From Oceanospirillaceae bacterium ASP10-02a (GTDB taxonomy: Bacteria; Pseudomonadota; Gammaproteobacteria; Pseudomonadales; Balneatricaceae), in contig CAJIZL010000021.1 in NCBI GenBank assembly GCA_905182035.1, positions 1 to 58,804 on the forward strand: a DNA stretch of 58,804 nt, written 5' to 3'. The notes under the pieces are model-generated. The model worked only from the letters and a program-made list of their open reading frames with translations. It did not search any database and was not told where the DNA came from. Positions within the stretch are counted from its first letter, which is position 1. The number at the start of each line of letters is the position of its first letter. Positions 23,826-52,428 of this stretch are shown piece after piece. Made by a program: the position numbers and the translations under genes.

Positions 23826-23850
23826 TTCTTGATAATAAGGAGACTCATAC

Positions 23851-24180: not shown

Positions 24181-27176
24181 GCCAAGTTAATCGCTTAGCA
24201 ACGGGTGGCCGAATTGATCGTGCCAAACCAATGAGCTTTACATTTAATGGTAAAACCTACCAAGGGTTTGACGGTGACACCTTAGCTTCTGCCATGTTGG
24301 CAAACGGCGTAGGTATTGTAGGCCGTAGCTTTAAATATAGCCGCGCACGTGGCATTTTAGGCCACGGTGCTGAAGAACCCAATGCCTTGATGCAGTTGCA
24401 CAAAGGCAATGCAACGGTTCCTAACCCAAGGGCAACACAAGTTGAGTTGTTCGATGGATTAACTGCTACCAGCACTAACGGTTGGCCTAATGCTGAATTC
24501 GACATCATGCAATGGGTTGGTATAATTGGTGGCAAACTAATGCCTCCTGGTTTTTACTACAAGACCTTTATGGCGCCACAAAAAATGTGGATGACCTACG
24601 AAAAATTTATTCGCAAAGCTGCAGGTTTTGGTAAGTTATCCCTTGAGCCAGATCCAGATACCTACGACAAACTCAATGTTCATTGTGACGTGATGGTGGT
24701 GGGTGCAGGCCCAGCAGGTTTAGCGGCCGCATTAGAAGCTGGCCGTAGCGGTAAGCGCGTCATCATTGTTGATGAGCAAAATGAGTTCGGTGGCACTTTA
24801 TTAGGCAGCAAGCAAACCGTAGATGGTGTGGATGCTGCTGCTTGGGCCGAGCAAGCCACTAGCGAGCTAGCTGGTATGGCTAACGTAACAGCAATGCCAC
24901 GCACCACTGCGTTTGGTTACTACGACCACAACTTCCTGTGTGCACTAGAGCGACGTACCGATCACATTGGGCCTGTTGCCTTAGCTGGTACACGCCAGCG
25001 TGTTCACCGTATTCGTGCCCATCAGGTGGTATTAGCCACTGGTGCTATCGAACGACCGTTAGTCTTCGGTAATAACGATCTACCTGGCATAATGCTGGCT
25101 AACTCTGTGTCTACGTATATTAACCGTTATGCCGTAGTGCCAGGCCAACGTTGTGTAGTGATGACTACTAATGATTCTGGTTACCAAACTGCCTTAGACA
25201 TCCAGTCTGCAGGTCGAACCGTTGTGGCTGTAGTCGATTCACGGCATGCACCAGATGGGCGTCTTGTTGAAGCCGCTAAAGTTGCTGGCATTCAAGTGAT
25301 GGCAGGCCATGGTGTGATTGAAGCTCAAGGTGGTAAAAAAGTCACTGGTGCTATTGTGGCTCCGTTAGATGAAGCTGGCGACAAAGTAACTGGCGCAGGC
25401 AAAACCCTGAGCTGTGATTTAATTGCTGTTGCTGGTGGTTGGAGCCCTGTGGTTCACTTAAGCTGCCACACTGGTAGCCGCCCAGTATGGCAAGAAGACG
25501 TTGCAGGTTTTGTACCTGGCCCTACTATTCAAAACCAACACCTAGCGGGTGCTGTTGCTGGCGAGTATGGTTTATCACAAGCATTAAATGCGGGCATTCA
25601 AGCCGGTGCCACTGCTGCTGGCACAGAATGTGCCCAAGTATTTAATTGTGGTGATGAGTCTGAAGGCGCCGCACAAGCCCTTTACTTAGTGCCTCACACT
25701 AAGCCTATTAGCCGTGCCCCTAAACAGTTTGTTGATTTCCAAAATGACGTCACTGCTGCTGGTATCGAACTGGCTGCCCGTGAAGGTTTCCAATCTATTG
25801 AACATGTGAAACGTTATACGGCCATGGGCTTTGGTACTGACCAAGGTAAAACAGGTAACGTTAACGGTATGGCTATTGTGGCTAAGGCCTTAAATAAGTC
25901 GATTGCTGAAACAGGCACTACCATCTTCCGTCCTGCATACACGCCAGTCACCTTTGGTGCTATAGGCGGCCGTGACATTGGTGTGTTGCTAGACCCAGCG
26001 CGTCACACAGCCATGCATCCATGGCATGTCGCTAATGGTGCAGAGTTTGAAAATGTGGGTCAATGGAAGCGCCCTTGGTACTTCCCGCAGGCAGGGGAAA
26101 CCATGCAGCAAACCCTTAACCGGGAATGTTTGGCGGTACGCAACAGTGTAGGTATGTTAGATGCCTCTACCTTAGGCAAGATTGACATCCAAGGTAAGGA
26201 TGCCCGTGAATTCCTTAACCGTGTTTACACCAACGCTTGGACTAAGTTAGCCCCAGGTAAGTGTCGTTACGGCTTAATGCTTAAAGAAGACGGCATGATC
26301 TTTGACGATGGTGTAACCGCGTGTTTAAGTGACCACCACTTCTTGATGACCACCACCTCTGGTGGTGCAGCTGCGGTATTGGCTTGGTTAGAATTATGGC
26401 ATCAAACTGAATGGCCAGAACTAGACGTGTACTTCACGTCGGTAACAGATCAATGGGCCACCTGTTCATTTGCTGGGCCAAATTCCCGTAAAGTGCTTGA
26501 GAAGCTATGTACTGATGTAGATCTTTCTGCCGAAGCAATGAAGTTTATGGATTACCGAGAAGGCACTGTTGCTGGTATTAAGTCACGTATCTTCCGTATT
26601 TCCTTTACAGGTGAATTGTCTTTTGAGGTGAACGTGCCGGCAGACCAAGGTCATTACATGTGGCAAAAGCTCATGGAAGCTGGTGAAGAGTTTGGCATTA
26701 CGCCTTATGGCACCGAATCTATGCACGTATTGCGGGCAGAGAAAGGCTTCATTATTGCTGGCCAAGACACAGATGGTTCTATGACGCCTTATGATTGCTT
26801 GATGGGCTGGGCCGTTGGTAAAACTAAAACCTTCAGCTTCTTGGGCGAGCGTTCATTTACTCGTCCAGACACAGCTCGTGCAGACCGTAAGCAGTTGGTG
26901 GGTTTAAAACCTAAAGATCCGACAGTAGTGATCCCAGAAGGCTCACAAATTGTTATGGACCCTAACCAGCCTATCCCAATGGATATGATGGGCCACGTTA
27001 CTTCTAGCTACTGGAGTGAATGTTTAGGTCACGGCATTGCCATGGGTACTGTTAAAGGTGGATTAGCGCGCATGGGCGAAACGGTATACTGCCCGCTTGC
27101 CGACGGCCGCGTATTGGCAGCTGAGATTTGCAGCCCAGTGTTCTATGATCCAAAAGGAGATCACCACCATGACTAG
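24177..27176 (+). CDS. soxA: Sarcosine oxidase-type alpha subunit
   Basis: 999 residues, full length. In order: an N-terminal ferredoxin-like domain (FTFNGKTYQGFDGDTLASAM), an NAD/FAD domain (VVGAGPAGLAAALEAGRSG, near 175-195), and a C-terminal aminomethyltransferase/GcvT-like domain from about 620 that binds tetrahydrofolate and takes the one-carbon unit. The GcvT part is intact, so the one-carbon unit can go to the folate pool. It overlaps soxD by four bases and soxG by eight. Confidence 0.94.
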   Translation: MSQVNRLATGGRIDRAKPMSFTFNGKTYQGFDGDTLASAMLANGVGIVGRSFKYSRARGILGHGAEEPNALMQLHKGNATVPNPRATQVELFDGLTATSTNGWPNAEFDIMQWVGIIGGKLMPPGFYYKTFMAPQKMWMTYEKFIRKAAGFGKLSLEPDPDTYDKLNVHCDVMVVGAGPAGLAAALEAGRSGKRVIIVDEQNEFGGTLLGSKQTVDGVDAAAWAEQATSELAGMANVTAMPRTTAFGYYDHNFLCALERRTDHIGPVALAGTRQRVHRIRAHQVVLATGAIERPLVFGNNDLPGIMLANSVSTYINRYAVVPGQRCVVMTTNDSGYQTALDIQSAGRTVVAVVDSRHAPDGRLVEAAKVAGIQVMAGHGVIEAQGGKKVTGAIVAPLDEAGDKVTGAGKTLSCDLIAVAGGWSPVVHLSCHTGSRPVWQEDVAGFVPGPTIQNQHLAGAVAGEYGLSQALNAGIQAGATAAGTECAQVFNCGDESEGAAQALYLVPHTKPISRAPKQFVDFQNDVTAAGIELAAREGFQSIEHVKRYTAMGFGTDQGKTGNVNGMAIVAKALNKSIAETGTTIFRPAYTPVTFGAIGGRDIGVLLDPARHTAMHPWHVANGAEFENVGQWKRPWYFPQAGETMQQTLNRECLAVRNSVGMLDASTLGKIDIQGKDAREFLNRVYTNAWTKLAPGKCRYGLMLKEDGMIFDDGVTACLSDHHFLMTTTSGGAAAVLAWLELWHQTEWPELDVYFTSVTDQWATCSFAGPNSRKVLEKLCTDVDLSAEAMKFMDYREGTVAGIKSRIFRISFTGELSFEVNVPADQGHYMWQKLMEAGEEFGITPYGTESMHVLRAEKGFIIAGQDTDGSMTPYDCLMGWAVGKTKTFSFLGERSFTRPDTARADRKQLVGLKPKDPTVVIPEGSQIVMDPNQPIPMDMMGHVTSSYWSECLGHGIAMGTVKGGLARMGETVYCPLADGRVLAAEICSPVFYDPKGDHHHD

Positions 27177-33850: not shown

Positions 33851-35065
33851 TTAGCCCGGGGTCATCCCACGCAACCGCTCTGAGCGCCGACGCAGCAATT
33901 CAAGCGTCGTCAATAACGCAACGGAAATGCAGACAAGGATCGTCGCCACCGCCAGAATAGTCGGACTGATCTGTTCACGCAGACCTATAAACATCTGCCA
34001 TGGAAGTGTCTTCTGACTGGCGGAACCAATGAACATCACGACGACAACCTCGTCAAAAGACGTTATGAAGGCGAAGAGACCACCGGAAACAACTCCCGGA
34101 AAGATCAAAGGCATCTGGACGCGAAAAAACGTGGTTACTGGGTTTGCACCCATATTGGCTGCTGCACGGGTCAGCGAGGTGTCAAAACCCACGAGCGTTG
34201 CTGTCACGGTGATAATGACAAACGGGATCCCCAAAACAGCATGCGCCAACACAACTTTGACGTACCCAACAAAATTCTTATCAAGCCCCAAGGTATTTTC
34301 CATGAAGTTACCCATGGTAGAGTAAAAGAAAAACATGCCAGTCGCCGAAATAATCAGCGGCACTATCATAGGTGAAATCAAAATCGCCATAATTGCTCGT
34401 TTGGCTGGCACATGGCTTTGACTGAGCCCGATTGCCGCAAGCGTTCCTAGAGAGACAGATATAACCGTCGCAATCGGCGCAATGATCAGTGAGTTCCAGA
34501 ACGAACGTTGCCACTCATCGTTATTGAAGAAATCCTGATAGTGCTTGAGAGAATAGCCAGCGGGATCAAATCGCAACATTTCAGGGGTAAAGGTAAAGTA
34601 ATTCTGCGCGTTGAAAGACAGGGGCATCACAACGAGAATGGGCGTGATCAAAAATATAAAGATCAGGCCGCAGATCACCCTAAAGCTGTAGTGCCACAGG
34701 ACCTGATTAGAGGTCAAATAAGAGTGCAATTTGACGCGGTAACCACCTTCATAAATCCAATAGAAAAACCATCCAAAAAACCACCCAATCAACGCTCCAC
34801 AAAAGCTCCCAACTAGGCCTAAAAAGAAAAAACCTAAGGCGGCCAAAAGGGTGGGTAAAAGTAAACGCACAGCCTTCGGTCTAAAATATTCGGTTACAGC
34901 AATTCCATAGGCGAATATTACAGAGACCACTGAACCGAAAATAACCCCAATCAGAGCAGATCCGAATGCTGGTCCTACAAATAAACCAATAAAGGCCCCC
35001 ATCAGTCCCATTACTGGCAACACAAAAGACAAAGGACGCCGTGACACCTGAGAAAACATATCCAT
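33851..35065 (-). CDS. ABC transporter permease, PotC-like, with extra N-terminal membrane region
   Basis: 404 residues against about 265 for E. coli PotC. The last 265 or so are the canonical permease: membrane segments and the coupling helix ANMGANPVTTFFRVQMPLIFPG. The first 120 residues are an added Gly-rich hydrophobic region with about four membrane segments (GLMGAFIGLFVGPAFGSALIG, split in two helices), ending before the usual first helix. Last gene of the importer operon, four bases after the PotB-like gene. Substrate class is spermidine/putrescine-like or another cationic amine, by homology. Confidence 0.85.
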   Translation of the reverse strand: MDMFSQVSRRPLSFVLPVMGLMGAFIGLFVGPAFGSALIGVIFGSVVSVIFAYGIAVTEYFRPKAVRLLLPTLLAALGFFFLGLVGSFCGALIGWFFGWFFYWIYEGGYRVKLHSYLTSNQVLWHYSFRVICGLIFIFLITPILVVMPLSFNAQNYFTFTPEMLRFDPAGYSLKHYQDFFNNDEWQRSFWNSLIIAPIATVISVSLGTLAAIGLSQSHVPAKRAIMAILISPMIVPLIISATGMFFFYSTMGNFMENTLGLDKNFVGYVKVVLAHAVLGIPFVIITVTATLVGFDTSLTRAAANMGANPVTTFFRVQMPLIFPGVVSGGLFAFITSFDEVVVVMFIGSASQKTLPWQMFIGLREQISPTILAVATILVCISVALLTTLELLRRRSERLRGMTPG

Positions 35066-35069
35066 GTTC

Positions 35070-36344
35070 TTAGCCCCCCAACTTTACGTTGTCGATCCCG
35101 ACAACTTTGTCATAAGCCCAGTAGAGTATTAACACCACCGCAAGTAAAATTGCTCCAAGAGCTGCAGCTAATCCCCAATTCATTGATTGGAAAATATGGT
35201 AGGCTATTCGATTAGAAATAAAGACGCCTTTGTTGCCACCAACAATTTCTGGAGTAATATAGTAGCCGATCGACAGTATGAAAACTAAGATAGATCCAGC
35301 TCCAATACCGGGCACCGATTGCGGAAAGTAAACTCGCCAAAACGCAGTCCAATTGGTTGCGCCAAGAGATTTTGCCGCCTGCAGATAGGTTGGCTGTATC
35401 GTCTGCATTACTGAATACATCGGCAGGATCATAAACGGCAACAAAATATGCGTCATTGCAATGATCGTACCAAACTGATTATTGATCATCACCAAACGGC
35501 CAGATTCTTCAATCATCCCTAGCGCAACGAAAATATCATTGATGACCCCTTGCTGCTGCAGCATGACTTTCCATGCTGAGGTTCTTACCAGTAAAGAGGT
35601 CCAGAATGGTAATAGGACGAGAATCATCAACAAGTTGGATTGGCTTCTGGGCAGATTGGCAAGCAACCACGCCACCGGATACCCCAACAAAATACAGGCC
35701 ACCGTTATTAGCAGAGACATAATCAGCGTACGTTGAAACAGTTTAATTAAAATCTGCCTATTTTCAGGCTGCATTTCTGGGCCGTTCTGAGTCTTACGCA
35801 TGTCCACCGCATTAAGAAAATACCCAGCGGTATATCGCGAGCTGTGGGTTTTAAGTGTTTGCCATATCTCAACTTCGCCCCAGCCTTTGTGCGCTGCTAT
35901 CAGTTTTTCTTTGAACGGCGCGTCAGTCTCAAGATCCCATTTCTTCGCCTGTCGCGCAGTTTTCTTGAAGAGTGAGGCGCTGCCAGATTTTTCATAATTT
36001 AACCGCAGGCCAACCCTTGTGTGACTTTTGTTTTTGGCTGCGCGCTGAAGATCGCCAGCAAAAGCCGCATAAATAGTTTCATCCGGTAATTCGCCCGACT
36101 TCCCATCCCAAGTCGCTAGAGCGACCACAGTTTCTGGTAATATTTCCACTACAATGTTGTTTTCGACCGATCGAAAGAGCATAGATCCTATCGGAAAAAG
36201 AAACGTAATTAAAACAAAGATAAGAAGTGGCGATATCAGGAGCAGCGCACGGATTTTTTGCCGCCTTAACGCTGTGGCTAAACTACGCTTAAGGGGTTGT
36301 CCATCTGCGGTCAACATAGCACCGTTTTCGTTAGTATTACTCAT
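35070..36344 (-). CDS. ABC transporter permease, PotB-like, with large periplasmic insertion
   Basis: 424 residues. After the first membrane helix (LLISPLLIFVLITFLFPIG) comes a hydrophilic insert of about 150 residues before the second helix. E. coli PotB, at about 275 residues, lacks this. The C-terminal part has the EAA-type coupling loop AKSLGATNWTAFWRVYFPQSVPG. This extended form is familiar from alphaproteobacterial amine importers. It pairs with the PotC-like permease and follows twin terminators that separate it from the binding-protein gene. Confidence 0.87.
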   Translation of the reverse strand: MSNTNENGAMLTADGQPLKRSLATALRRQKIRALLLISPLLIFVLITFLFPIGSMLFRSVENNIVVEILPETVVALATWDGKSGELPDETIYAAFAGDLQRAAKNKSHTRVGLRLNYEKSGSASLFKKTARQAKKWDLETDAPFKEKLIAAHKGWGEVEIWQTLKTHSSRYTAGYFLNAVDMRKTQNGPEMQPENRQILIKLFQRTLIMSLLITVACILLGYPVAWLLANLPRSQSNLLMILVLLPFWTSLLVRTSAWKVMLQQQGVINDIFVALGMIEESGRLVMINNQFGTIIAMTHILLPFMILPMYSVMQTIQPTYLQAAKSLGATNWTAFWRVYFPQSVPGIGAGSILVFILSIGYYITPEIVGGNKGVFISNRIAYHIFQSMNWGLAAALGAILLAVVLILYWAYDKVVGIDNVKLGG

Positions 36345-36390
36345 GTCGTTCCCATAGCCAGCTCAGCATCTCAAAGGTACAAGCTAATTT

Positions 36391-36477
36391 AAAATAGAAA
36401 AGGGCCAACCTAGGCCCTTTTCTATTTTACATTGTCTTATTTAAAAAAAAGGGCCAACCAAGGCCCTTTTGTATTTT
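36391..36477 (-). terminator. Two tandem near-identical hairpins between binding-protein and permease genes
   Basis: The first (36391-36429) is a long near-perfect palindrome with AAAAGGGCC / GGCCCTTTT arms around AACCTA. The second (36443-36477) repeats AAAAGGGCC-AACCAA-GGCCCTTTT. Both have A-runs on one side and T-runs on the other, so they can work in either direction. Lying after the binding-protein stop and before the permease start, they probably reduce permease transcription relative to the binding protein. Confidence 0.8.
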
Positions 36478-36485
36478 ACGTTATC

Positions 36486-37586
36486 TTATTTTGCAAGCCA
36501 AGCTTGAAACTTACCTTCGATATCGTCCTTATAATCTGCCCAGAAAGCATAGTTCATGAGGAACGTATTTTTCGAGTTGGCAGGGTCAGTAGGCATGTGA
36601 GGTGCCATATCGATACCCAACTCCGCATGCTTATCAACTAAAGCGGCTGATGACGCGCGGGTTGGTCCATAGCTAATCCATTTGGATTGGTCAGCAAGGC
36701 GCTGAGTGTCCGTTGCAAACTTCACATAGTCCAGAGCTCGTGCTTCACGCTCAGGGCTTAGACCGGTAGGAATAATCCAGCCGTCAAGGTCATAAATCTG
36801 ACCGTCCCAAAGCATTGAAACAGGTTGCTTGTCTTCTTCGATCAAGGCGAACAAACGGCCATTAAAAGTTGAGCCCATGACGACTTCGCCATCGGCTAAC
36901 AATTGTGGCGTATCAGCACCTGCAGACCACCAGATCACATCGTCTTTGATGGTATCTAGTTTTGCAAGAGCTTGGTCCTGACCAGCTTCTGTTTCCAGTG
37001 TTGGATAGATATCTGCTTTGGCAACGCCATCACACAGAAGGGCCCATTCCATGTTGGAAAGAGCACCTTTTTTCAATGAGCGTTTGCCAGGATAAGTTTC
37101 TGTATCAAAGATCGCGCAGATGCTTGTTGGAGGCGTACTGCCAACCATATCGTTGCGGAAGCCCACAGTATAAGAGTAAACAATCTGCGGAATAAAGCAT
37201 GGCGAAACAATAAAAGAACCAAAATCTACTGACGCAGGAGTTCCATCTGGTGCATCGGCTAGCATAGAATCGTGATCGATTTCCATTGCAAGACCTTCGT
37301 CGCAAAGCTGCATCGCAGGACCAGCTTCAACGTCGACAACATCCCAAGTTAGGTTACCCGCTTCTTTCATAGCACGCAATTTTGCGACAGCTGTACCTGC
37401 ACTCTCATCATTAATGATAGTGACGCCAGTCATTGCCGAATAGGGCTCATGGTATGCTTTTAGTTGTGATTTAGAATAGGCGCCGCCCCATGACACGATG
37501 GTCATTTCCTCGTGCGACCCTGCAAGTGCTAATCCAGCGGGTAGCGATAGCGCCACTGTCACTAGAACAGTTTTTGTGAATTTCAT
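36486..37586 (-). CDS. ABC transporter substrate-binding protein, PotD-like
   Basis: 366 residues with a signal peptide ending GLALA-GSHEE. The mature protein begins MTIVSWGGAYSKSQLKAY, a usual start for the PotD/PotF branch of periplasmic binding proteins. DDVIWWSAGADTPQLLADGEV and SMLWDGQIYDLDGWIIP line the expected ligand cleft. Ligand cannot be named; polyamines or related amines are the family norm. GGGAGAA on the coding strand precedes the ATG. Confidence 0.87.
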   Translation of the reverse strand: MKFTKTVLVTVALSLPAGLALAGSHEEMTIVSWGGAYSKSQLKAYHEPYSAMTGVTIINDESAGTAVAKLRAMKEAGNLTWDVVDVEAGPAMQLCDEGLAMEIDHDSMLADAPDGTPASVDFGSFIVSPCFIPQIVYSYTVGFRNDMVGSTPPTSICAIFDTETYPGKRSLKKGALSNMEWALLCDGVAKADIYPTLETEAGQDQALAKLDTIKDDVIWWSAGADTPQLLADGEVVMGSTFNGRLFALIEEDKQPVSMLWDGQIYDLDGWIIPTGLSPEREARALDYVKFATDTQRLADQSKWISYGPTRASSAALVDKHAELGIDMAPHMPTDPANSKNTFLMNYAFWADYKDDIEGKFQAWLAK

Positions 37587-37701
37587 TACATTCTCCCGAA
37601 GTAGCCCGTTTTATTTTTAGGATAGGATCTGCGTTACGGGCAGAACAAAAGATCCACATGTAAGAGACGTCCCTAATGGGACGCACTCAATCATTCAAGT
37701 C

Positions 37702-38805
37702 TCAGGCGTCTAGAGCCCGACAATCCGACGGCAACCAGCCGATGTCAATATGGGAACCAGGTTCCAGCCGAACCTGATCCGGCGCGTTGCGGGTCTTTAC
37801 AATAAAATTGTCATTACCAGCTACCCGCAGGCGAGTACGGAACATATCACCCATATAGATGAATTCGAGTACCTCTGCACTGAGCGTATGCGCACCGGGC
37901 TGAAAGCGTTCTTTGTTAAACTCGACCCGTTCAGGCCGGATTGACACCCGAGTGCGCTCACCAGCTTTGGTGACATTGACAGGGTTGCAATCGATCAATT
38001 TTCCGTCGTTCAATTGAACCAGAGCAACACCGCTAGAAATTTCTTTCACCACGCCTTCCAACGTGTTGTTCTCGCCTATAAACTGCGCCACAAAACTGTT
38101 TTGCGGAGATTCATATAATTCTGCAGGCGGGGCCAATTGCTGGATCCGCCCATCGTTAAATACCGCAACCCGGTCTGACATGGTCAGCGCCTCGGTCTGG
38201 TCATGTGTCACATAGACCACCGTAATCCCAAGATTTTCGGCAATCCGCTTAATTTCGAACTGCATATGTTCGCGTAACTGCTTATCCAGCGCTCCTAAAG
38301 GCTCATCCATCAACACCAATTCAGCCTCAAATACAAGCGCACGCGCAAGTGCTACACGCTGTTGCTGACCGCCAGATAACTGGGCTGGTCTGCGGCCCCC
38401 AAACTCACCCATTTGCACCATTTCAAGCGCCCGCTTTACTTTGGCCTCGCGATCAGCTTTGCCAATTTTTCGCACCTCAAGCGGAAACGCGAGATTCTCA
38501 GCCACAGTCATATGGGGGAACAGCGCATAATTCTGAAACACCATCCCGATTCCACGCTTATGCGGCGGAATATTATTGATCGAGATTCCGTCCAGCATTA
38601 TGTCACCGTGGGTCGCCGTCTCAAAACCGGCCAGCATCATCAGACAGGTGGTTTTCCCCGACCCAGAGGGTCCCAACATAGTCAGAAACTCGCCTCTTGG
38701 CATTGACAGGTTTAAGTCTTTCACTACCAACGACAACCCATCGTAACTTTTCTGTACGCGATCAAATTTTACGAAAGCATCGGTTTCACTCGTCTTGCTT
38801 GTCAA
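37702..38805 (-). CDS. ABC transporter ATPase, PotA-like
   Basis: 367 residues. Walker A GPSGSGKTTCLMMLAG, Q-loop QNYALFPHMTV, signature LSGGQQQRVALARAL, Walker B LVLMDEPLGALD and switch His in VYVTHDQTEALTMSD are all present. The C-terminal TOBE domain (RVSIRPERV) is typical of PotA/MalK-type ATPases. First gene of the importer operon, transcribed ahead of the binding protein and the two permeases. Confidence 0.93.
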   Translation of the reverse strand: MTSKTSETDAFVKFDRVQKSYDGLSLVVKDLNLSMPRGEFLTMLGPSGSGKTTCLMMLAGFETATHGDIMLDGISINNIPPHKRGIGMVFQNYALFPHMTVAENLAFPLEVRKIGKADREAKVKRALEMVQMGEFGGRRPAQLSGGQQQRVALARALVFEAELVLMDEPLGALDKQLREHMQFEIKRIAENLGITVVYVTHDQTEALTMSDRVAVFNDGRIQQLAPPAELYESPQNSFVAQFIGENNTLEGVVKEISSGVALVQLNDGKLIDCNPVNVTKAGERTRVSIRPERVEFNKERFQPGAHTLSAEVLEFIYMGDMFRTRLRVAGNDNFIVKTRNAPDQVRLEPGSHIDIGWLPSDCRALDA

Positions 38806-41537: not shown

Positions 41538-42512
41538 ATGAAAATAGGTTTTATAGGGCTAGGTAATGTAGGTAGTAAGTTAGCAGGTAGTTTATTGCGT
41601 AATGGTTATGAGGTCATAGTCCGAGACCTGAACGATGATTTTGTGGCCGATTTTGCAGTGCGTGGAGCCCACACTGCCGATTCTCCAAAACAGCTTGCCC
41701 AAGCTAGCGACATCATTATTACGTGTTTGCCGTCTCCAGACGCCTGCTCTGCAGTGATGGAAGGAACGGAGGCTGAAGAAGGGGTCATTGCAGGTTTGTC
41801 TGCTGGTAAAATATGGCTGGAAATGTCTACCACAGACGAGAGCGAGATACGGCGTATTGGCGAACTGGTAAAGGCTGCAGGCGCAGAACCTGTAGACTGT
41901 CCGGTGTCTGGCGGTTGTCACCGTGCTGACACAGGTAATATTTCTATTTTTGCAGGCTGCAGTCGGGCGGCATTTGAGCGAGTCTTACCTGTGCTTACCA
42001 CCTTGGGTCGAAGAGTATTACACACTGGGGAGCTAGGTACGGCATCAAAATTAAAGGTGGTCACCAACTATCTAGCAACGGCGCACCTAGTGGCATTAGG
42101 GGAGGCTTTAACGGCCTGTAAGGTCATGGGTTTGGACATGAATGTGAGTTACGAAGCTATCAAAGCCTCCTCTGGCACCTCCTTTGTTCACGAAACAGAA
42201 TCTCAAGTGATTCTTAATGGCTCGCGAGACATTAACTTTACCGTTGACCTAGTCCTTAAAGACGTTGGCCTCTTCAATACCTTGACTCAAAGGGAAGGTA
42301 TGAAGTTAGATTTGGCACCGTTATTGGTTGATATTTTTAGCCAAGCGCAAGCTGAATGGGGACCTCGAGAAAAGTCTCCCAATATTATCCGGCGTTATGA
42401 AGAACCCATGGGCGTTAAAGTGTTAGGCCATGGTTTTCCAGCCGATATCCTTGATGATGAGCCAGAAGAAACTGGCCATGAGCTGATGGTGCTAGGCCGA
42501 CAAGATGGTTAG
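41538..42512 (+). CDS. NAD(P)-dependent beta-hydroxyacid dehydrogenase (3-hydroxyisobutyrate dehydrogenase family)
   Basis: 324 residues, slightly longer than the usual 290-300 because of a C-terminal extension after the SQAQAEWG segment. Cofactor motif GFIGLGNVGSKLAGSLL; substrate loop DCPVSGGCHRADTGNISIFAG; catalytic Lys in SKLKVVTNYL. Members oxidise beta-hydroxyacids such as 3-hydroxyisobutyrate, tartronate semialdehyde (reduction) or sulfolactaldehyde (reduction). It forms a two-gene unit with the aldehyde dehydrogenase. Confidence 0.88.
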   Translation: MKIGFIGLGNVGSKLAGSLLRNGYEVIVRDLNDDFVADFAVRGAHTADSPKQLAQASDIIITCLPSPDACSAVMEGTEAEEGVIAGLSAGKIWLEMSTTDESEIRRIGELVKAAGAEPVDCPVSGGCHRADTGNISIFAGCSRAAFERVLPVLTTLGRRVLHTGELGTASKLKVVTNYLATAHLVALGEALTACKVMGLDMNVSYEAIKASSGTSFVHETESQVILNGSRDINFTVDLVLKDVGLFNTLTQREGMKLDLAPLLVDIFSQAQAEWGPREKSPNIIRRYEEPMGVKVLGHGFPADILDDEPEETGHELMVLGRQDG

Positions 42513-45092: not shown

Positions 45093-45094
45093 AA

Positions 45095-45858: not shown

Positions 45859-47031
45859 ATGAATGTCAAACTGATTGCCAAATCACCTAATAAAATCGTA
45901 CAGACAGCTGAGTTTTTAGATGTATTGTCAAAATGTATTGCAAGCCCTGATAAGGCTTATAGTCTGCCCCCCGCCTGTTACTCTGATCAATCAGTTTTCG
46001 AAACAGAAATTGAAACAATTTTTCACGGTTCTTGGATTAGTGTAGGACGTGCAGATCGCCTCCCAAAGTCCGGAGACTATAGAACCTTGGATATAGCCAA
46101 GTCTCCAACTATCATAGTCCGAGATAAGCAGGGGAAGTTACGAGCCTTTGCCAATAGCTGTCGTCATCGTGGCGCTAGACTTTTGGACGGCGAAGGTACT
46201 TGCCGAGTAATTAGATGCCCATTTCACAGCTGGACCTATCAGTTAGACGGCAGTTTAATGGGAGCGAGCAAAATGGAGCTCACGAAAAACTTCGAAAAAT
46301 CTGATCATGGGCTCATAGAGTTTGAAATCGCAGAACGACTTGGATTTGCTTTCGTCTGTATGAGCGATGAGCCAGAGGATATTGACTCACGTCTTGGGGA
46401 TTTTGAGCAGTTACACAAGTCTTGGCATCTTGCCTCTTTTACTACTACCCGACAGAGAAAATTTAAAGTCAATTGTAACTGGAAGGGCTTTCTCGATGTT
46501 TTCAATGAGCACTACCATCTGCAATTTGTCCACCCCAATACAATTTCCAACGTTTATGAAACGCCCCACGCTGCCGATGAGACAAGTGGATCTTACGCCA
46601 GCCAATATGGGGAGACTTCGGGTACCGGTGGTTTACTGGAAGGTCAGGAAGAATATGGCTTGCCCCTAATACCTAATCTTGAAAAGAAGCTAGAAAATGG
46701 TGTCCGTTATACTTGGGTTTTTCCAAATATGGCCTTCGCCATAGGAGCAGATGCGTTATGGATATATGAGACCTATCCGTTGGGACCCGACCGCTGTGAG
46801 GTACATCAAACTGTGTGTTTTCCTCCTGAAACGATTGAACTGGCGGATTTTGAAGAACGAGTCAAATACTACTACCACAGAATGGACGCAGCAATACAAG
46901 AAGATATACCCGCATTGGAAAATCAACAAAAGGGTCTGTCATCAGTGTTTGCACGCCCAGGAAGATTCTCTGCACACCTGGAAGCAAATGTAGCGGCGTT
47001 CGCAAAATGGTACGCAGAAGAGTTGTTGTAA
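45859..47031 (+). CDS. Rieske [2Fe-2S] oxygenase, large subunit (CntA/GbcA-like group)
   Basis: 390 residues. The Rieske site is Cys101-x-His103 and Cys120-x2-His123 within SCRHRGARLL and RCPFHSW. The mononuclear iron site is in NEHYHLQFVH, with His220 and His225. The residue that links the two centres is Glu217 where aromatic dioxygenases have Asp; Glu is described at this place in carnitine monooxygenase CntA. This points to the branch acting on methylated amines (carnitine, glycine betaine, choline, stachydrine) rather than aromatics. No ferredoxin reductase partner is in the window. It is upstream of gmaS-mgsABC on the same strand, separated by 307 bases, and could be an N-demethylase feeding that pathway. 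Substrate is not determined. Confidence 0.85.
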   Translation: MNVKLIAKSPNKIVQTAEFLDVLSKCIASPDKAYSLPPACYSDQSVFETEIETIFHGSWISVGRADRLPKSGDYRTLDIAKSPTIIVRDKQGKLRAFANSCRHRGARLLDGEGTCRVIRCPFHSWTYQLDGSLMGASKMELTKNFEKSDHGLIEFEIAERLGFAFVCMSDEPEDIDSRLGDFEQLHKSWHLASFTTTRQRKFKVNCNWKGFLDVFNEHYHLQFVHPNTISNVYETPHAADETSGSYASQYGETSGTGGLLEGQEEYGLPLIPNLEKKLENGVRYTWVFPNMAFAIGADALWIYETYPLGPDRCEVHQTVCFPPETIELADFEERVKYYYHRMDAAIQEDIPALENQQKGLSSVFARPGRFSAHLEANVAAFAKWYAEELL

Positions 47032-47338
47032 CACCCTCTCGACAAACGCAGGCTAGCAGTAGATCAATTGATCAGTGTGCAAAACTATACGGGTATAGAA
47101 GTGGCTCGGACGCGGACTCTCTTTAGAGTCAACAACTGACTTTCGTGGTTATTTGATGCGGTAGGAGATTTTTACTATTCCTCTCGGTCTGATATAGAGT
47201 GAAATAACAAATTCTAACCAAGAAATATATCTGATACTCTAATAAATTATTCTTAACAAGAACATTTTATTCGTTTTGTTAATATTAACTGCTATACTAA
47301 CCTGTAGGCACTAAAACAATAACCGTAAGGAAAACCTA
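47032..47338 (+). other. Leader/promoter region of the gmaS-mgsABC operon
   Basis: 307 bases, AT-rich towards the gene, without an open frame of note. It separates the Rieske gene from gmaS and carries a likely promoter (separate entry). GTAAGGAAAA at about 47325-47334 is the ribosome site of gmaS. Confidence 0.55.
47290..47298 (+). promoter_or_regulatory. Candidate extended -10 promoter of gmaS
   Basis: TGCTATACT (TG at 47290-47291, TATACT at 47293-47298) fits the extended -10 form TGnTATAAT with one mismatch. The -35 region is weak, as is common for extended -10 promoters. It lies 40 bases before the gmaS start. Confidence 0.4.
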
Positions 47339-48670
47339 ATGATCACTACTGCTGAAAAGTTTTTATCTGACAATAAAATTAACTTTGTTCTAGCTCAGTT
47401 TGTCGATATTCATGGCGTTGCAAAAACTAAATCAGTGCCATCTGCAAATCTAGCTGATGTTGTAACCAATGGTGCAGGATTTGCAGGATTTGCGATCAAC
47501 GGATTGGGAATGGAACCTCATGGGCCAGATTTTATGGCTAGAGGAGACTTAGACACCCTTTCCATTGTGCCCTGGCAGCCAGGGTACGCGCGCATAGTTT
47601 GTGATGGTTATGTCAACGATCAGCCTTATGCATATGACAGCAGGGTTGTGTTAAAAAGACAGGTTGAAATGTTACGTCAGAGACAATGGACTTTAAACAC
47701 AGGCCTAGAACCAGAATTTTCCTTGTTTTCCCGCACTGATGATCAAAGCGTTACTCTGGTGGATAAATCTGACACATTGGACAAACCTTGTTACGACTAT
47801 AAGGGTTTGTCCCGTTCAAGAAAGTATTTAGAAACCTTAGTGGGTGCGTTACAGGAGGTCGATTTTGATGTCTATCAAATCGACCATGAAGACGCCAACG
47901 GTCAGTTTGAAATAAACTACACTTATAGCGACGCTTTGACCTCTGCAGACCGTTTTACATTTGTGCGCATGGCCGCTGGAGAAATTGCCCATGACATGGA
48001 TATGGTCTGCTCTTTCATGCCCAAGCCAATTGCAGATCGTGCCGGTAATGGCATGCACTTTCACCTATCCATCACAGACCCCCAAGGTAACAACCTATTC
48101 TGTGATGAAAATGACCCTAGTGGTATGGGTTTATCTACTATGGCGTATCACTTTATGGCAGGCCTGTTACATCATGCCAAAGCACTGTGTGCATTATCGG
48201 CACCCACCGTGAATTCATATAAACGGCTAGTGGTAGGAGGCTCTGCATCTGGAGCAACCTGGGCGCCTGCGTACATTTGTTATGGCGACAACAATCGTTC
48301 TGCCATGGTTCGCATCGTTTATGGGCGCTTAGAGTATCGTCTACCAGACTCTTCATGCAATCCGTATTTAGTTCATGCCGCCATCATTGCAGCAGGTTTG
48401 GATGGCATTGACCGTAAGCTAGACCCAGGTGCCGCCCAAAATATTAATCTATACAGTTTATCCAGCGAACAACGTATTGCGGCAGGAATCGATTTGCTAC
48501 CTCAAAATTTAGGTGAGGCGGTCGACGCCCTAGAGGCAGACACCCAGCTTATTGGATTAATAGGTGAGGAAATTTGCGGCGAATTTATTAAACTTAAACG
48601 TGATGAATGGATAGAGTATTGCCGCTACGTGACGGAGTGGGAGCGTAAGCGTTATCTTGAATTATTTTAA
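47339..48670 (+). CDS. gmaS: Gamma-glutamylmethylamide synthetase (glutamine synthetase family)
   Basis: 443 residues, glutamine synthetase fold of the GlnA-III type. It joins methylamine to glutamate using ATP to make gamma-glutamylmethylamide, the first step of the N-methylglutamate pathway. Marks: [30 protein letters not shown] (metal Glu), [38 protein letters not shown] and the later [16 protein letters not shown]-type Arg loop. The HEDANGQFE motif and the mgsABC genes that follow directly separate it from true glutamine synthetase. First gene of a four-gene operon. Confidence 0.92.
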
Positions 48671-48712
48671 GCCGTAAAAAACCTTCACCACCCAACAAAA
48701 AGGAACTCACCT

Positions 48713-49618
48713 ATGTGCGGAATTGTAGGCCTCTATTTAAAAAATCACGCTTTAGAAAATCAAATCGGCAGCATGTTTGCACCGATGCTGGAGGCTATGA
48801 CGGGCCGGGGCCCAGATAGTGCAGGTTTTGCCATATACGGCGATGAGGTGCCTAAAGGGTCAACCAAACTCACCTTGTATCACCAAGATCTTACCTATGA
48901 CTGGGATGCATTGGCCCACCGTGCTCAAGCCCAGCTCGCGGTGCCGATTGAGTTTTTCCGCAATCATCACGCAGCGGTGTTTAAGATTGCTACGGATGCT
49001 CAAACGGCCAGTGAGTATTTCTTAACCCATGCGCCAGAGTTAATCCTCTTAAGTGCAGGTCAATCCATTGAAATTCTCAAAGCCGTTGGCCTGCCTACAG
49101 AGATTAGCTCAGAGTTTAATTTATCTGGCATGAAAGGTAGCCACATTATTGGCCACACTCGTATGGCAACTGAATCAGCAGTAACCCTAGAAGGTTCACA
49201 CCCATTTTCAACGGGTCAAGACTTATGCCTGGTCCACAACGGTTCTTTTTCTAATCATAACCGCCTGCGCACTGAGCTTGCTTATCATGGTTACCATATG
49301 AAAACAGAAAACGATACCGAAGTGGCCGCAGGTTATCTTACCTGGCGCATGGACCAAGGAGATACACTTAAACAGTCCTTAGAGCATGCTCTTCAGGACC
49401 TCGATGGTTTCTATACCTTAGCCATAGGTACCCACGATGGTTTTGCGGTAATTCGGGATCCTATAGCCTGCAAACCAGCGGTGTTAGCGGAGACCGATGA
49501 TTATGTCGCTATGGCTTCTGAATACCAAGCATTAACCAGCTTACCAAACATAGATCAAGCCCGCATCTGGGAGCCAGAACCAGCAACCATATACTCGTGG
49601 CAGCGCGACAGTCACTAA
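48713..49618 (+). CDS. mgsA: N-methylglutamate synthase subunit A (class II glutamine amidotransferase domain)
   Basis: 301 residues with an N-terminal nucleophile cysteine right after the initiator Met (MCGIVGLYLK), and RGPDSAGFAIYG, GHTRMATES and VHNGSFSNHNRLR of class II amidotransferases. With MgsB and MgsC it is a split glutamate-synthase-like enzyme that moves the methylamine group of gamma-glutamylmethylamide to give N-methylglutamate. AAAAAGGAACT precedes the start. Confidence 0.92.
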   Translation: MCGIVGLYLKNHALENQIGSMFAPMLEAMTGRGPDSAGFAIYGDEVPKGSTKLTLYHQDLTYDWDALAHRAQAQLAVPIEFFRNHHAAVFKIATDAQTASEYFLTHAPELILLSAGQSIEILKAVGLPTEISSEFNLSGMKGSHIIGHTRMATESAVTLEGSHPFSTGQDLCLVHNGSFSNHNRLRTELAYHGYHMKTENDTEVAAGYLTWRMDQGDTLKQSLEHALQDLDGFYTLAIGTHDGFAVIRDPIACKPAVLAETDDYVAMASEYQALTSLPNIDQARIWEPEPATIYSWQRDSH

Positions 49619-49652
49619 CCCACATAAAATAGTTAGTTCTATTGGAGATAAC

Positions 49653-50330
49653 ATGCAATCAATTAACTTAGCAGAACATACAGTGCGAGAGCTTAATCAG
49701 CTTTTACACGACCAATCTAAAGACTTAGTAGAAGATCAATGGGAAATTAGTGAAACCAGTGGCCAGCACAATATTGCCTGCGGTCTCAATCAAAAACTTA
49801 ATGTCGGCATCAAAGGCCACGTGGGCTACTTTTGTGCTGGTATGAATCAACATGCCCATGTCACCGTGCATGGTAATGCCGGCCAGGGTGTGGCAGAAAA
49901 TATGATGTCCGGTACAGTGCATGTAAAAGGAGATGCCTCTTCTGCGGCGGGTGCTACTTCTCATGGTGGCCTGCTAGTGATTGATGGCAACACCGGTGCA
50001 CGTTGTGGTATTTCAATGAAGGGTAGCGACATAGTAGTCAAAGGCAATGTAGGCCACATGAGCTGTTTTATGGCCCAGGCCGGAACCTTAGTTGTCTGTG
50101 GCGATGCAGGCGAAGCCTTAGGAGACTCGCTCTACGAAACGGTTATATTTGTTAAGGGTAAAGTGCAGTCTTTAGGGGCCGATTGTGTCGAAAAATCAGT
50201 CACAGATAAGCACTTCAAACAACTTAAAAAACTATTGGATCGCGCAGGTTCTGAGGAAGATCCTACCCACTTCAAACGCTACGGCTCCGCACGCCAGCTA
50301 TATAACTTTAAAGTTGACAACGCTTATTAG
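49653..50330 (+). CDS. mgsB: N-methylglutamate synthase subunit B (GXGXG domain)
   Basis: 225 residues that fold as the GXGXG beta-helix of the glutamate synthase C-terminus, with repeated turns such as GHVGYFCAGMNQHAHVTVHG, GNAGQGVAENMMSG and GDAGEALGDSLYE. It has no catalytic residues of its own and is expected to be structural in MgsABC. TTGGAGAT lies before the ATG. Confidence 0.9.
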   Translation: MQSINLAEHTVRELNQLLHDQSKDLVEDQWEISETSGQHNIACGLNQKLNVGIKGHVGYFCAGMNQHAHVTVHGNAGQGVAENMMSGTVHVKGDASSAAGATSHGGLLVIDGNTGARCGISMKGSDIVVKGNVGHMSCFMAQAGTLVVCGDAGEALGDSLYETVIFVKGKVQSLGADCVEKSVTDKHFKQLKKLLDRAGSEEDPTHFKRYGSARQLYNFKVDNAY

Positions 50331-50341
50331 GAATCAGACCC

Positions 50342-51667
50342 ATGAACAACAATGACACCCAAGACAATCTACGCGAATCTGCTACGTTTGACCGAGTCAC
50401 CATGGCGGAGATTCGTCGAGCAGCAGAAACTGGTATTTATGACATCCGTGGTTTTGGGGCTAAACGCAAACTACCTCATTTTGACGACCTACTGTTTCTA
50501 GGAGCTAGCATGTCACGCTACCCACTAGAAGGGTATCGTGAAGCCTGTGAAACTAAAGTTGTTTTAGGCACGCGATTTGCTAAAAAACCGATCATTATTG
50601 ACACTCCCGTAACCATTGCTGGTATGAGTTTCGGCGCTTTGTCCGCCAATGCTAAAGAGGCGTTAGGCCGTGGGGCTTCTGCGGTAGGAACCTCAACCAC
50701 CACTGGTGATGGCGGTATGACACCAGAAGAACGCGGGCAGTCCGACAAACTAGTTTATCAGTACTTACCCTCGCGTTATGGCATGAACCCAGATGATCTG
50801 CGTAAAGCCGATGCCATCGAGATAGTGCTGGGGCAGGGCGCCAAGCCAGGTGGCGGTGGCATGCTCCTAGGTCAAAAAATAACCGACCGCGTAGCAGGTA
50901 TGCGCACACTACCTAAAGGAGTAGATCAACGTTCTGCTTGTCGCCACCCCGATTGGACTGGACCAGATGATCTGGCCATAAAAATTCAAGAGCTGAGGGA
51001 GATTACCGACTGGCAAGTCCCCATTTATATCAAAATAGGCGCAACACGGACCTACTATGACGTTAAACTCGCAGTCAAAGCTGGGGCTGATGTCGTGGTT
51101 GTAGACGGCATGCAAGGCGGCACAGCGGCAACCCAAGAAGTTTTCATCGAACACGTTGGCATACCCACCTTGGCAGCGATTCCACAAGCAGTGCAGGCCT
51201 TACAAGACATGGGTATGCATCGCAAAGTTCAGCTTATTGTCTCTGGTGGCATTCGCAATGGCGCAGACGTAGCAAAATGTATGGCCTTAGGAGCTGATGC
51301 GGTTGCGATTGGCACTGCGGCCCTTGTGGCCTTAGGCTGTAACGACCCCAAATATGATGAAGAGTTTAAACAGTTAGGTTCTGCTGCAGGCTTCTATGAT
51401 GACTACCATGAAGGCAAAGACCCGGCTGGTATATCCACTCAAGATCCAATCCTTGCTCAACGCCTAAACCCTGTTGATGGTGGGCGTAAGTTAGCCAATT
51501 ATATCCGCGTTCTCACCTTAGAAGCACAAACCATTGCACGCGCCTGTGGCAAGAGCAACCTAAATAACTTAGAACCTGAAGACATGGTGGCTTTAACCTT
51601 GGAATCTGCTGCCATGGCCAAAGTTCCCCTTGCAGGCACCAGTTGGATTCCAGGGCAGTCATTTTAA
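50342..51667 (+). CDS. mgsC: N-methylglutamate synthase subunit C (FMN-binding glutamate synthase domain)
   Basis: 441 residues matching the central FMN domain of glutamate synthase: GMSFGALSANAKEALGRGA, STTTGDGGMTPEER, GQGAKPGGGGMLLG, VVVDGMQGGTAATQE and VSGGIRNGADVAKCMALGA. It performs the reductive transfer half of N-methylglutamate synthesis. Last gene of gmaS-mgsABC. No mgdABCD gene follows here, but a homologous sarcosine oxidase-type operon is at 22575-27792. Confidence 0.92.
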   Translation: MNNNDTQDNLRESATFDRVTMAEIRRAAETGIYDIRGFGAKRKLPHFDDLLFLGASMSRYPLEGYREACETKVVLGTRFAKKPIIIDTPVTIAGMSFGALSANAKEALGRGASAVGTSTTTGDGGMTPEERGQSDKLVYQYLPSRYGMNPDDLRKADAIEIVLGQGAKPGGGGMLLGQKITDRVAGMRTLPKGVDQRSACRHPDWTGPDDLAIKIQELREITDWQVPIYIKIGATRTYYDVKLAVKAGADVVVVDGMQGGTAATQEVFIEHVGIPTLAAIPQAVQALQDMGMHRKVQLIVSGGIRNGADVAKCMALGADAVAIGTAALVALGCNDPKYDEEFKQLGSAAGFYDDYHEGKDPAGISTQDPILAQRLNPVDGGRKLANYIRVLTLEAQTIARACGKSNLNNLEPEDMVALTLESAAMAKVPLAGTSWIPGQSF

Positions 51668-51846: not shown

Positions 51847-52428
51847 TTAATGACCACTATAATTAATGAATGATAACAACTTTACGGGCACGCTGTGGAG
51901 TTGTTCTGGCCCATGGGGAATGTTACCTTCAAAGGTTAAACTATCTCCCACCTCTAGGCGATATATATGATTGCCATGGCGGTAGGTAAGAGAGCCTTCG
52001 AGTATGTATACAAACTCCTCTCCTGGATGGGAGAATGATGGAAACACCTCTGCAAGATCATCCATGGTTACCAGAAATGGTTCAAAATTGCGCGTACCGC
52101 CGCGCTGATAATTCAGCAGGCGATACTCATGGCCCTTATCTGTACCTCGCCTTACAACCTCTAAACCTTCTCCAGACTTGGTAAAATGAGCATCGCCATC
52201 AACACGATTATAATTGGTCAATAATTGTGAAATAGGCATGCCAATAGCGTCACATAAGCGATTAAGTGAGTCTAAGCTGGGTGAGACTTGTGCATTTTCA
52301 ATTTTACTGATCATGCCCTGACTAATGCCAGACATTTGGCACACATCAACGATTTTTAAATCCGCCGCCTTGCGTGCTGATTTAATGGTAAGGCCGATAA
52401 ACTCGTCTAAGCCAAATTTTTTATTCAT
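51847..52428 (-). CDS. XRE-family regulator with C-terminal cupin domain
   Basis: 193 residues: helix-turn-helix at about 10-65 (IVDVCQMSGISQGMISKIEN) and a cupin sensor domain at about 105-190 with HPGEEFVYILEGSL and GDSLTFEGNIPHGPEQ. This layout is common in regulators of amine, polyamine or nitrogen catabolism. It converges on mgsC and is divergent from the M20 amidohydrolase gene, either of which it could control. Confidence 0.88.
   Translation of the reverse strand: MNKKFGLDEFIGLTIKSARKAADLKIVDVCQMSGISQGMISKIENAQVSPSLDSLNRLCDAIGMPISQLLTNYNRVDGDAHFTKSGEGLEVVRRGTDKGHEYRLLNYQRGGTRNFEPFLVTMDDLAEVFPSFSHPGEEFVYILEGSLTYRHGNHIYRLEVGDSLTFEGNIPHGPEQLHSVPVKLLSFINYSGH

What the first reader, a model, noticed from the sequence alone, without database searches (positions are those of the whole stretch)
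45859..47031. Rieske oxygenase beside gmaS as a candidate dimethylamine or other N-demethylase
The amidase would yield dimethylamine, while gmaS-mgsABC uses methylamine; the linking demethylation is not otherwise encoded here. This oxygenase has the bridging Glu (Glu217) of the carnitine/betaine-type branch and sits directly before gmaS. It could supply methylamine by oxidative N-demethylation or C-N cleavage of a methylated amine.
Basis: partly seen in the sequence, partly recalled or inferred. Interest (0 to 1): 0.7.

Follow-up and report, generated by a model that had tools for sequence, protein, structure and literature searches.

The report
Marine betaine-type Rieske oxygenase beside gmaS
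A real but unstudied oxygenase of marine bacteria, probably acting on a nitrogen-methylated natural product rather than on dimethylamine, sits next to methylamine-use genes in this genome in an arrangement that none of its compared relatives share.

Summary
The gene is real: 45859-47031 (+) encodes a 390-aa Rieske oxygenase with all metal ligands and bridging Glu217. It belongs to a supported clade of 33 sequences (41-65% identical to it) apart from GbcA and YeaW; nearest solved structures are CntA and stachydrine demethylase. Adjacency to gmaS is not conserved: 0 of 32 other clade loci have gmaS or mgs nearby, and two congeners carry gmaS-mgsABC-XRE (86-96% identical) without this oxygenase. 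Recurrent neighbours differ: a luciferase-like monooxygenase (LLM1) with aldehyde dehydrogenase, a PhnZ/TmpB-like HD protein, carnitine-type genes. At least one of six such partners lies in 20 of 32 clade loci and 0 of 32 other Rieske loci. In seven loci the oxygenase is directly beside LLM1. This genome carries LLM1 on another contig; no orthologue of either was found in 114 relatives. In three Roseovarius genomes the LLM operon, lacking the oxygenase there, runs into mgsABC-gmaS. Best reading: an oxygenase for a quaternary N-methyl betaine whose breakdown may end in methylamine; substrate unknown. Dimethylamine is unsupported, though no complete dmm system was found. The window's mgd-like genes score as sarcosine oxidase. 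Moderate interest.

The parts
45859..47031 (+). Rieske non-haem iron oxygenase alpha subunit (390 aa), the finding
   Evidence: ORF; Pfam Rieske and Ring_hydroxyl_A; clade tree; model pLDDT 89.1; Foldseek best CntA 6zgp E 4.8e-34
47032..47338 (+). 307-bp gap between the oxygenase and gmaS, with a perfect 12-bp palindrome GTTAATATTAAC at 47278-47289
   Evidence: palindrome (3 matches with up to 2 mismatches, 3.63 expected); DNA similarity to congeners begins at 47339 or 47350, after this gap
47339..48670 (+). gmaS-type glutamine synthetase (type III)
   Evidence: TIGR03105 643.2 bits, cut-off 469.6; followed by mgsABC here and in congeners
48713..51667 (+). mgsA (48713-49618), mgsB (49653-50330), mgsC (50342-51667), N-methylglutamate synthase-like subunits
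   Evidence: mgsC 96% identical in G010 and G012. The mgs names are by family likeness and gene order
51847..52428 (-). XRE/cupin-type regulator (weak PuuR match, 47 bits, below cut-off), part of the gmaS-mgsABC block kept in two congeners
   Evidence: 94-95% identical in congeners
41538..42512 (+). beta-hydroxyacid dehydrogenase family protein (HIBD-type); homologues at 61-63% lie after the oxygenase in five of six SAR324-type loci
33851..38805 (-). ABC transporter genes (binding protein SBP_bac_8; other names by reading); ATPase 43-45% identical to that of clusters L013, L016, L156, L160, L163 (weak link)
22548..27176 (+). Heterotetrameric sarcosine oxidase subunits SoxB (22548-23825) and SoxA (24177-27176), by score not N-methylglutamate dehydrogenase
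   Evidence: SoxB 710 and SoxA 1462 bits, above cut-offs; gmaS-adjacent homologues in G019 score 497 and 838, below
2824..5181 (+).
   Evidence: PF20254 319.6 bits

Best explanation
The protein is the oxygenase component of a Rieske oxygenase of the quaternary-ammonium (group V) kind, in a clade with no characterised member that I know of. Likely mechanism: an electron donor reduces the Rieske cluster, the electron passes across the subunit interface through Glu217 to the iron held by His220/His225/Asp349, and O2 oxidises a quaternary N-methyl betaine held by an aromatic pocket (Phe215 in the place of CntA Tyr203). The product (a demethylated or hydroxylated, C-N cleaved compound) goes to a flavin-dependent luciferase-like monooxygenase (LLM1), an aldehyde dehydrogenase and hydrolases; in this genome these are on contig C5, beside carnitine-type genes. 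In some bacteria the released N-methyl group ends as methylamine for GmaS/Mgs. Shown: protein family, ligands, clade, gene linkage, co-occurrence, unshared gmaS adjacency. Inferred: quaternary substrate, reaction, electron donor, end product. Adjacency to gmaS here is most likely incidental, and dimethylamine is probably not the substrate.
For: Closest solved structures are CntA (E 4.8e-34) and then stachydrine demethylase by structure; CntA is also first by sequence. Aromatic at the CntA Tyr203 position: Phe in 33 of 33 clade members; Y203F of CntA is active (PMC7948474). LLM1/HD/BKACE/carnitine-dehydrogenase-like/HIBD/acyl-CoA dehydrogenase: at least one near 20 of 32 clade loci and 0 of 32 other Rieske loci. 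Oxygenase directly beside LLM1 in 7 loci, in five of them between ALDH and LLM1. LLM1 at 62% identity or more in 18 of 31 clade genomes searched, own genome included. Orthologues of the oxygenase and of LLM1 were not found in 114 relatives (best there 36% and 46%) and both are here, on different contigs. Own C5 cluster has LLM1 (81%), ALDH (67%), RidA (57%), hydrolase (47%), BKACE-like (61%), ECH (64%). The ALDH-LLM1-AAsyn-ABH-ThDP-CMD operon contains the oxygenase in L022 and continues into XRE-mgsABC-gmaS in L165, L168, L169. gmaS block without this oxygenase in G010 and G012.
Against: Group V membership is not proven: tree forks between the clade, GbcA and YeaW are weak, and Phe at that position and the bridging Glu are also common in other Rieske oxygenases (33 and 37 of 41). 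Most CntA pocket residues differ (Tyr295 is Gln317, Asn270 is Ala292, Phe319 is Ala345) and the CntA cysteine pair is absent (0 of 33). 13 of 31 clade genomes lack an LLM1 orthologue, including that of the nearest relative of the oxygenase (G115, 36% only) and all five SAR324-type genomes. Linkage there is to HD or PhyH genes instead, so substrates may differ within the clade. Several LLM1 operons lack the oxygenase. Partners and thresholds were chosen after seeing the clade loci. No CntB/GbcB-type reductase was found by two family searches.
Confidence: 0.5

Rival explanations
1. It is a dimethylamine (or other small methylamine) N-demethylase that links the dimethylformamidase to gmaS-mgsABC.
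For: Directly upstream of gmaS on the same strand; DMFA2-like amidase in the window; no complete dmm found.
Against: gmaS/mgs near 0 of 32 clade loci; two congeners have the gmaS block without it; CntA did not accept three non-quaternary analogues (PMC7948474); recurrent partners are betaine-type. Known dimethylamine monooxygenases are not Rieske enzymes (recalled).
Confidence: 0.07
2. It is a glycine betaine (or dimethylglycine) demethylase: carnitine and phosphonate modules (carnitine-dehydrogenase-like and BKACE; PhyH-HD/TmpB-like) make glycine betaine, this enzyme demethylates it, and the sarcosine oxidase in the window finishes the job.
For: Carnitine-type genes and TmpB/PhnZ-like HD genes near clade members (likeness of the own HD protein to PhnZ and TmpB); sarcosine oxidase in the window; carnitine-dehydrogenase-like and BKACE-like proteins in the own genome, both below their NCBIfam cut-offs.
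Against: GbcA model score 190.5 bits against a cut-off of 670, while four GbcA proteins of relatives pass it and lie in another starred clade; Phe215, not the Asn of demethylating group Vb; no GbcB-type reductase found.
Confidence: 0.2
3. It hydroxylates an N-methylated ring (trigonelline- or homarine-like pyridinium betaine) before the luciferase-like enzyme opens the ring.
For: LLM1 + flavin reductase + ALDH + alpha/beta hydrolase + RidA resembles ring-opening sets such as Tgn and Rut (recalled); Mgd is cited as taking part in homarine catabolism (PMC13390433, passage); invariant aromatics Y284 and W301 and near-invariant W286 and Y303.
Against: LLM1 operons without the oxygenase at that place exist (L165, L168, L169, L174, plasmids L209 and L210). 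The homarine paper is not held, so its operon could not be compared. LLM1's best PDB match is only 80.8 bits.
Confidence: 0.13
4. The clade has diverged and different members have different substrates; the copy here, apart from its partners, has no conserved role.
For: Several neighbourhood types; LLM1-linked and HD-linked members are scattered over the clade (4 and 5 changes of label on the tree).
Against: Catalytic positions and several aromatic positions are invariant across the clade; the genome keeps the LLM1 cluster and a PhyH-HD pair.
Confidence: 0.1

Closest known systems
Carnitine monooxygenase CntA/YeaW (group Va)
   Same: Fold (TM 0.80 by query length to 6zgp_G), metal ligands, bridging Glu, aromatic at the Tyr203 position, Tyr315 kept as Tyr338
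   Different: About 27% identity to CntA, 29% to YeaW; separate clade from YeaW; Tyr295, Asn270, Phe319 and the cysteine pair are changed; no CntB-type reductase found
Glycine betaine monooxygenase GbcA (group Vb)
   Same: Rieske oxygenase with bridging Glu; 29-30% identity
   Different: 190.5 bits against cut-off 670; Phe instead of Asn at the 203 position; no cysteine pair; separate starred clade
Stachydrine demethylase Stc2 (3vca, 4qup)
   Same: Fold, next best after CntA in Foldseek (3vca E 3.9e-31, 24% identity)
   Different: Sequence match confined to the N-terminal part in phmmer (residues 33-240); Stc2 belongs to the Asn group by the paper
TmpA/TmpB and PhnY/PhnZ phosphonate oxygenases
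   Same: An HD protein like that of the own genome, which matches PhnZ and TmpB weakly, lies near 9 of 32 clade loci; own genome has a PhyH-HD pair
   Different: They are neighbours, not relatives; in this genome on another contig
Dimethylamine monooxygenase DmmDABC
   Same: Proposed function only
   Different: Not homologous to a Rieske oxygenase (recalled); in the own genome only a lone HODM-like protein was seen

Membership tests
Rieske oxygenase alpha subunit | CXH...CXXH cluster ligands and 2-His-1-Asp iron site | tested here: met
   C101,H103,C120,H123,H220,H225,D349 in 33 of 33; Pfam both domains
Group V quaternary-ammonium Rieske oxygenases | Bridging Glu | tested here: met
   E217 in 33 of 33, but also in 37 of 41 others, so not diagnostic
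Group V quaternary-ammonium Rieske oxygenases | Phylogenetic placement with CntA, GbcA, Stc2 | tested here: inconclusive
   Own starred clade; deep forks weak (59/53); Foldseek nearest are CntA and Stc2. CntA and Stc2 themselves were not in the tree, YeaW and GbcA were
Group Va (CntA-like) | Tyr or Phe at CntA position 203 | tested here: met
   Phe215 in 33 of 33; also Phe in 33 of 41 others
Group Va (CntA-like) | Cys-X-X-Cys next to the iron site (some group V only) | tested here: not met
   Position 206 Tyr (31) or His (2) and 209 Leu (33) in 33; PMC10952381 passages
CntA carnitine monooxygenase | Carnitine pocket Tyr225, Asn270, Tyr295, Phe319 | tested here: not met
   His237, Ala292, Gln317, Ala345 in the window protein, counted by hand on the phmmer alignment; position 317 over the clade: Gln 31, Met 2
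GbcA glycine betaine monooxygenase | NCBIfam NF058607 cut-off 670 bits | tested here: not met
   190.5 bits
Dimethylamine monooxygenase (Dmm) | dmmDABC gene set | tested here: not met
   Protein is a Rieske oxygenase; PF22290 not found in the genome
gmaS-mgsABC operon member | Conserved neighbour of gmaS | tested here: not met
   0 of 32 clade loci; not beside the gmaS block of G010 and G012
N-methylglutamate pathway in the window | MgdABCD present | tested here: inconclusive
   Candidate at 22548-27176 is SoxB and SoxA by score; the rest of the genome was not searched for Mgd
Quaternary-ammonium oxygenase | Turnover of a quaternary amine | not testable with these tools
   Needs enzyme assay

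The most novel reading that the evidence does not exclude
The oxygenase clade is the entry enzyme of an undescribed aerobic route in which a Rieske oxygenase and a luciferase-like flavin monooxygenase, side by side in the seven loci where they are neighbours, take apart an N-methyl betaine, with ALDH, AA_synth (PF06684), alpha/beta-hydrolase and a ThDP enzyme, and hand the nitrogen as methylamine to MgsABC-GmaS.
Probability: 0.22. Interest if true: 0.62.

Novelty: new variant of a known kind. Interest (0 to 1): 0.38.

Why it matters
N-methylated betaines are abundant in marine plankton and few of their bacterial degradation enzymes are known (recalled). An oxygenase clade found in Roseovarius and other roseobacters, SAR116, SAR324, a Thioglobus and other Gammaproteobacteria, tied in part to a defined operon, gives a testable substrate search in cultured strains. 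It also shows that adjacency to gmaS in one genome can mislead, and that sox genes can be mistaken for mgd genes.

Tried and rejected
Dimethylamine reading: rejected as main reading for lack of synteny. GbcA: rejected on score and tree. Carnitine monooxygenase: rejected on pocket and tree. Reading the window's sox/mgd-like genes as the N-methylglutamate dehydrogenase: rejected on scores. Promoter or terminator evidence between oxygenase and gmaS: over 45050-52700, 11 promoter-like sites against 13.6 expected and 3 terminator-like against 7.6, so nothing to use; the palindrome before gmaS is not enriched when mismatches are allowed. Plasmid search: 946 records match, none at 60% identity or more.

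Papers. Searches: 'homarine' with 'Rieske' (1 paper), 'Rieske', 'gmaS', 'demethylase' (1), 'homarine' with 'N-methylglutam' (2), 'homarine' since 2023 (34, 30 listed), trigonelline/luciferase-like/tgnA, two of three (3), SPO0826 (1), N-methylpicolin/operon/marine bacteria, two of three (540, 5 listed), Rieske/carnitine monooxygenase/glycine betaine/stachydrine, three of four (16, 10 listed). None of the listed titles and abstract starts describes this clade, but most subscription papers are not held. Seen as passages: PMC13390433, PMC12093977, PMC2954203 (which links PF06684 to branched-chain amino-acid transport genes and does not mention luciferase-like or Rieske genes), PMC10952381, PMC7948474 (section 6 whole). 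The homarine paper of Ferrer-Gonzalez et al. 2026 was seen only as a reference.

Co-occurrence counts compare different taxa and are not corrected for relatedness. Only 17 of 32 clade loci have full flanks of about 10 kb. L008/L010 are near copies; L031 and L036 carry identical copies from one assembly. One clade genome (L025) was not held.

Full report
Observation. ORF 45859-47031 (+) encodes 390 aa with both Rieske oxygenase domains over the Pfam cut-offs. Cluster ligands C101, H103, C120, H123, iron ligands H220, H225, D349 and bridging E217 are present in all 33 clade members aligned. The AlphaFold model, from an alignment of 23 sequences (the window and 22 of the 32 clade loci), has mean pLDDT 89.1, with low confidence at residues 1-9 and 220-228, the latter at the iron site. 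Foldseek ranks CntA chains first (6zgp_G, E 4.8e-34, TM 0.80 by query), then stachydrine demethylase 3vca (3.9e-31) and 3n0q (4.2e-31); phmmer also puts CntA first (135 bits).

Clade. The search for related loci gave 64 relatives. Of these, 32 (L005-L036) are 41-65% identical to the window protein, and the other 32 are 23-38%. A maximum-likelihood tree of 70 rows (12 of the distant rows were left out before building) puts the window protein and the 32 loci in one starred clade (99/91; 97/99 without L034), with L005 as sister (100/99). It is apart from five GbcA rows and from YeaW; the deep forks are weak. The GbcA model NF058607 gives the window protein 190.5 bits against a cut-off of 670. Four of the five GbcA rows were scanned and give 725-781 bits; the fifth, L077, was labelled by its near-identity to L073 on the tree. 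The bridging Glu is also in 37 of 41 other Rieske oxygenases, so it does not mark a branch.

Pocket. From two papers on CntA (passages, one whole section): Tyr203 makes the cation-pi contact, Y203F stays active, group Vb demethylases have Asn there, and three non-quaternary gamma-butyrobetaine analogues were not substrates. The window has Phe215 there (33 of 33 in the clade, but also 33 of 41 others). CntA Tyr295, Asn270 and Phe319 correspond to Gln317, Ala292 and Ala345, and Tyr315 to Tyr338, counted by hand on the phmmer alignment. The cysteine pair is absent. This fits a quaternary or aromatic-cation substrate that is not carnitine; it does not prove it.

gmaS adjacency. No gmaS, mgsA, mgsB or mgsC was found in any of the 32 clade loci (17 have full flanks). 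mgsC occurs in 23 of 115 genomes of the relatives set (own included) at E 1e-120, 20 of them at 77% identity or more. Two congeners, G010 and G012, carry gmaS-mgsABC-XRE at 86-96% protein identity. DNA similarity to the window starts at 47339 or 47350, at or just after the gmaS start, and no homologue of this oxygenase was found in the stretches fetched (a small Rieske-ferredoxin-like ORF, by my reading, lies at 4223-4570 of L205). The flanks are an argC-like gene on one side and chloride-channel-like and hemL-like genes on the other (names read from the translations). In 114 other relatives the best matches to the oxygenase are 26-36% identical, in 11 genomes. So the adjacency was seen in this genome only. 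By contrast gmaS-like genes as such are common in clade genomes (27 of 31, own included, at E 1e-60; the others are 33-43% identical to this one), and 20 of the 31 have one next to an mgs gene at 50% identity or more, G143 on a short match.

What travels with the clade. By threshold counts, clade loci against other Rieske loci: LLM1 8 of 32 against 0 of 32; ALDH 6 against 0; HD 9 against 0; BKACE 5 against 0; ECH 6 against 0; HIBD 5 against 0; any of six chosen partners 20 against 0. The partners and thresholds were picked after seeing the clade loci, so this shows specificity and is not an unbiased test. The oxygenase lies directly beside LLM1 in L006, L012, L021, L022, L025, L026 and L030, and between ALDH and LLM1 in five of these (L012, L021, L022, L025, L026). 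The own genome has this set on contig C5 without the oxygenase: LLM1 (81% to L030), a second LLM, hydrolase (47%), RidA (57%), ALDH (67%), CMD, BKACE-like (61%), a carnitine-dehydrogenase-like protein (320 bits, cut-off 414) and ECH (64%). LLM1 at 62% or more is in 18 of 31 clade genomes (own included); 6 more have only 36-44% matches and 7 have none at E 1e-40, among them all five SAR324-type genomes. In the relatives set only the own genome has it; two others reach 45-46% at E 1e-90.

Two LLM arrangements. Type 1 (own genome, L156, L159-L163, and annotated plasmids L209 of Aminobacter sp. SR38 and L210 of Parasedimentitalea marina) joins ALDH-LLM1 to ECH (annotated carnitinyl-CoA dehydratase in L210), a 3-hydroxyacyl-CoA dehydrogenase, a DJ-1/PfpI-AraC type regulator, BKACE, an ABC transporter, acyl-CoA dehydrogenase and a CoA ligase; not every locus has every gene. 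Type 2 has a divergent LysR gene and ALDH-LLM1-AAsyn-ABH-ThDP enzyme-CMD, with an unassigned ORF before CMD in some. In L022 the oxygenase sits inside this operon, between ALDH and LLM1; L025 and L026 have ALDH-oxygenase-LLM1-AAsyn-ABH. In L165, L168 and L169 the same operon without it continues into XRE-mgsABC-gmaS, with an OpuAC betaine-type binding protein nearby in L165 (ThDP enzyme, CMD and LysR were identified by Pfam in L169 and carried over by BLAST). The genomes of L165, L168 and L169 carry the oxygenase elsewhere, by the way they were chosen. This is the one indirect link between the oxygenase and methylamine use.

HD link. The own HD protein matches PhnZ and TmpB weakly (31.4 and 26.0 bits). 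The own genome has a PhyH-HD pair on contig C1 (HD 47% to that of L005). Of six SAR324-type loci, L011, L014 and L015 have HD-PhyH-oxygenase, L031 and L036 PhyH-oxygenase with broken HD-like frames before it, L033 neither; five of six have HIBD after it.

The dimethylformamidase-like large subunit is supported. DmmA-like N domain: no match in the genome (the same search matched 2 of 14 control genomes). One HODM-like protein stands on contig C16 without dmm-like neighbours in the 10.8 kb read, which stop at the contig end. The genome is 89.5% complete, so absence is provisional. The soxB and soxA genes at 22548-27176 pass the sarcosine oxidase cut-offs, whereas homologues beside gmaS in G019 do not, so no N-methylglutamate dehydrogenase was recognised in the window. 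Electron donor: the only PF00175 protein lies among nqr-like genes (the NqrF name is my reading of the translations). A rubredoxin/rubredoxin-reductase fusion lies beside a second Rieske oxygenase on contig C2 and is a candidate donor.

Verdict. Observation confirmed, interpretation partly supported. The oxygenase is most likely a betaine-type enzyme working with the LLM1/ALDH module. Dimethylamine is unlikely, and the gmaS neighbour is probably incidental. Substrate and product remain unknown.

Noticed in passing
window 22548-27176: Cluster easily read as mgd genes scores as genuine sarcosine oxidase SoxB and SoxA; no NMG dehydrogenase was recognised in the window.
   Followed up: partly
L070 5590-10671 (contig C2): Second Rieske oxygenase with LysR, ALDH and a rubredoxin/rubredoxin-reductase fusion; Tyr at the CntA 203 position; no NCBIfam family at E 1e-60.
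   Followed up: partly
L165, L168, L169: Roseovarius operon LysR | ALDH-LLM-AA_synth-ABH-ThDP enzyme-CMD running into XRE-mgsABC-gmaS: a possible new methylamine-releasing pathway.
   Followed up: partly
L209, L210: Carnitine-type island with an LLM, RidA, hydrolase and AA_synth module shared by plasmids of a soil Aminobacter and a deep-sea roseobacter.
   Followed up: no
L093 5692-7108 (contig C1): PhyH-type 2OG oxygenase and PhnZ/TmpB-like HD protein as an overlapping pair, like PhnY-PhnZ.
   Followed up: partly
window 47278-47289: Perfect palindrome GTTAATATTAAC shortly before gmaS, outside the DNA shared with congeners.
   Followed up: partly
window 45098-45331: 78-aa stand-alone Lrp/AsnC ligand-binding domain on the minus strand upstream of the oxygenase.
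   Followed up: no
L069 6029-6946 (contig C16): Lone HODM-like protein without other dmm genes in the stretch read.
   Followed up: partly
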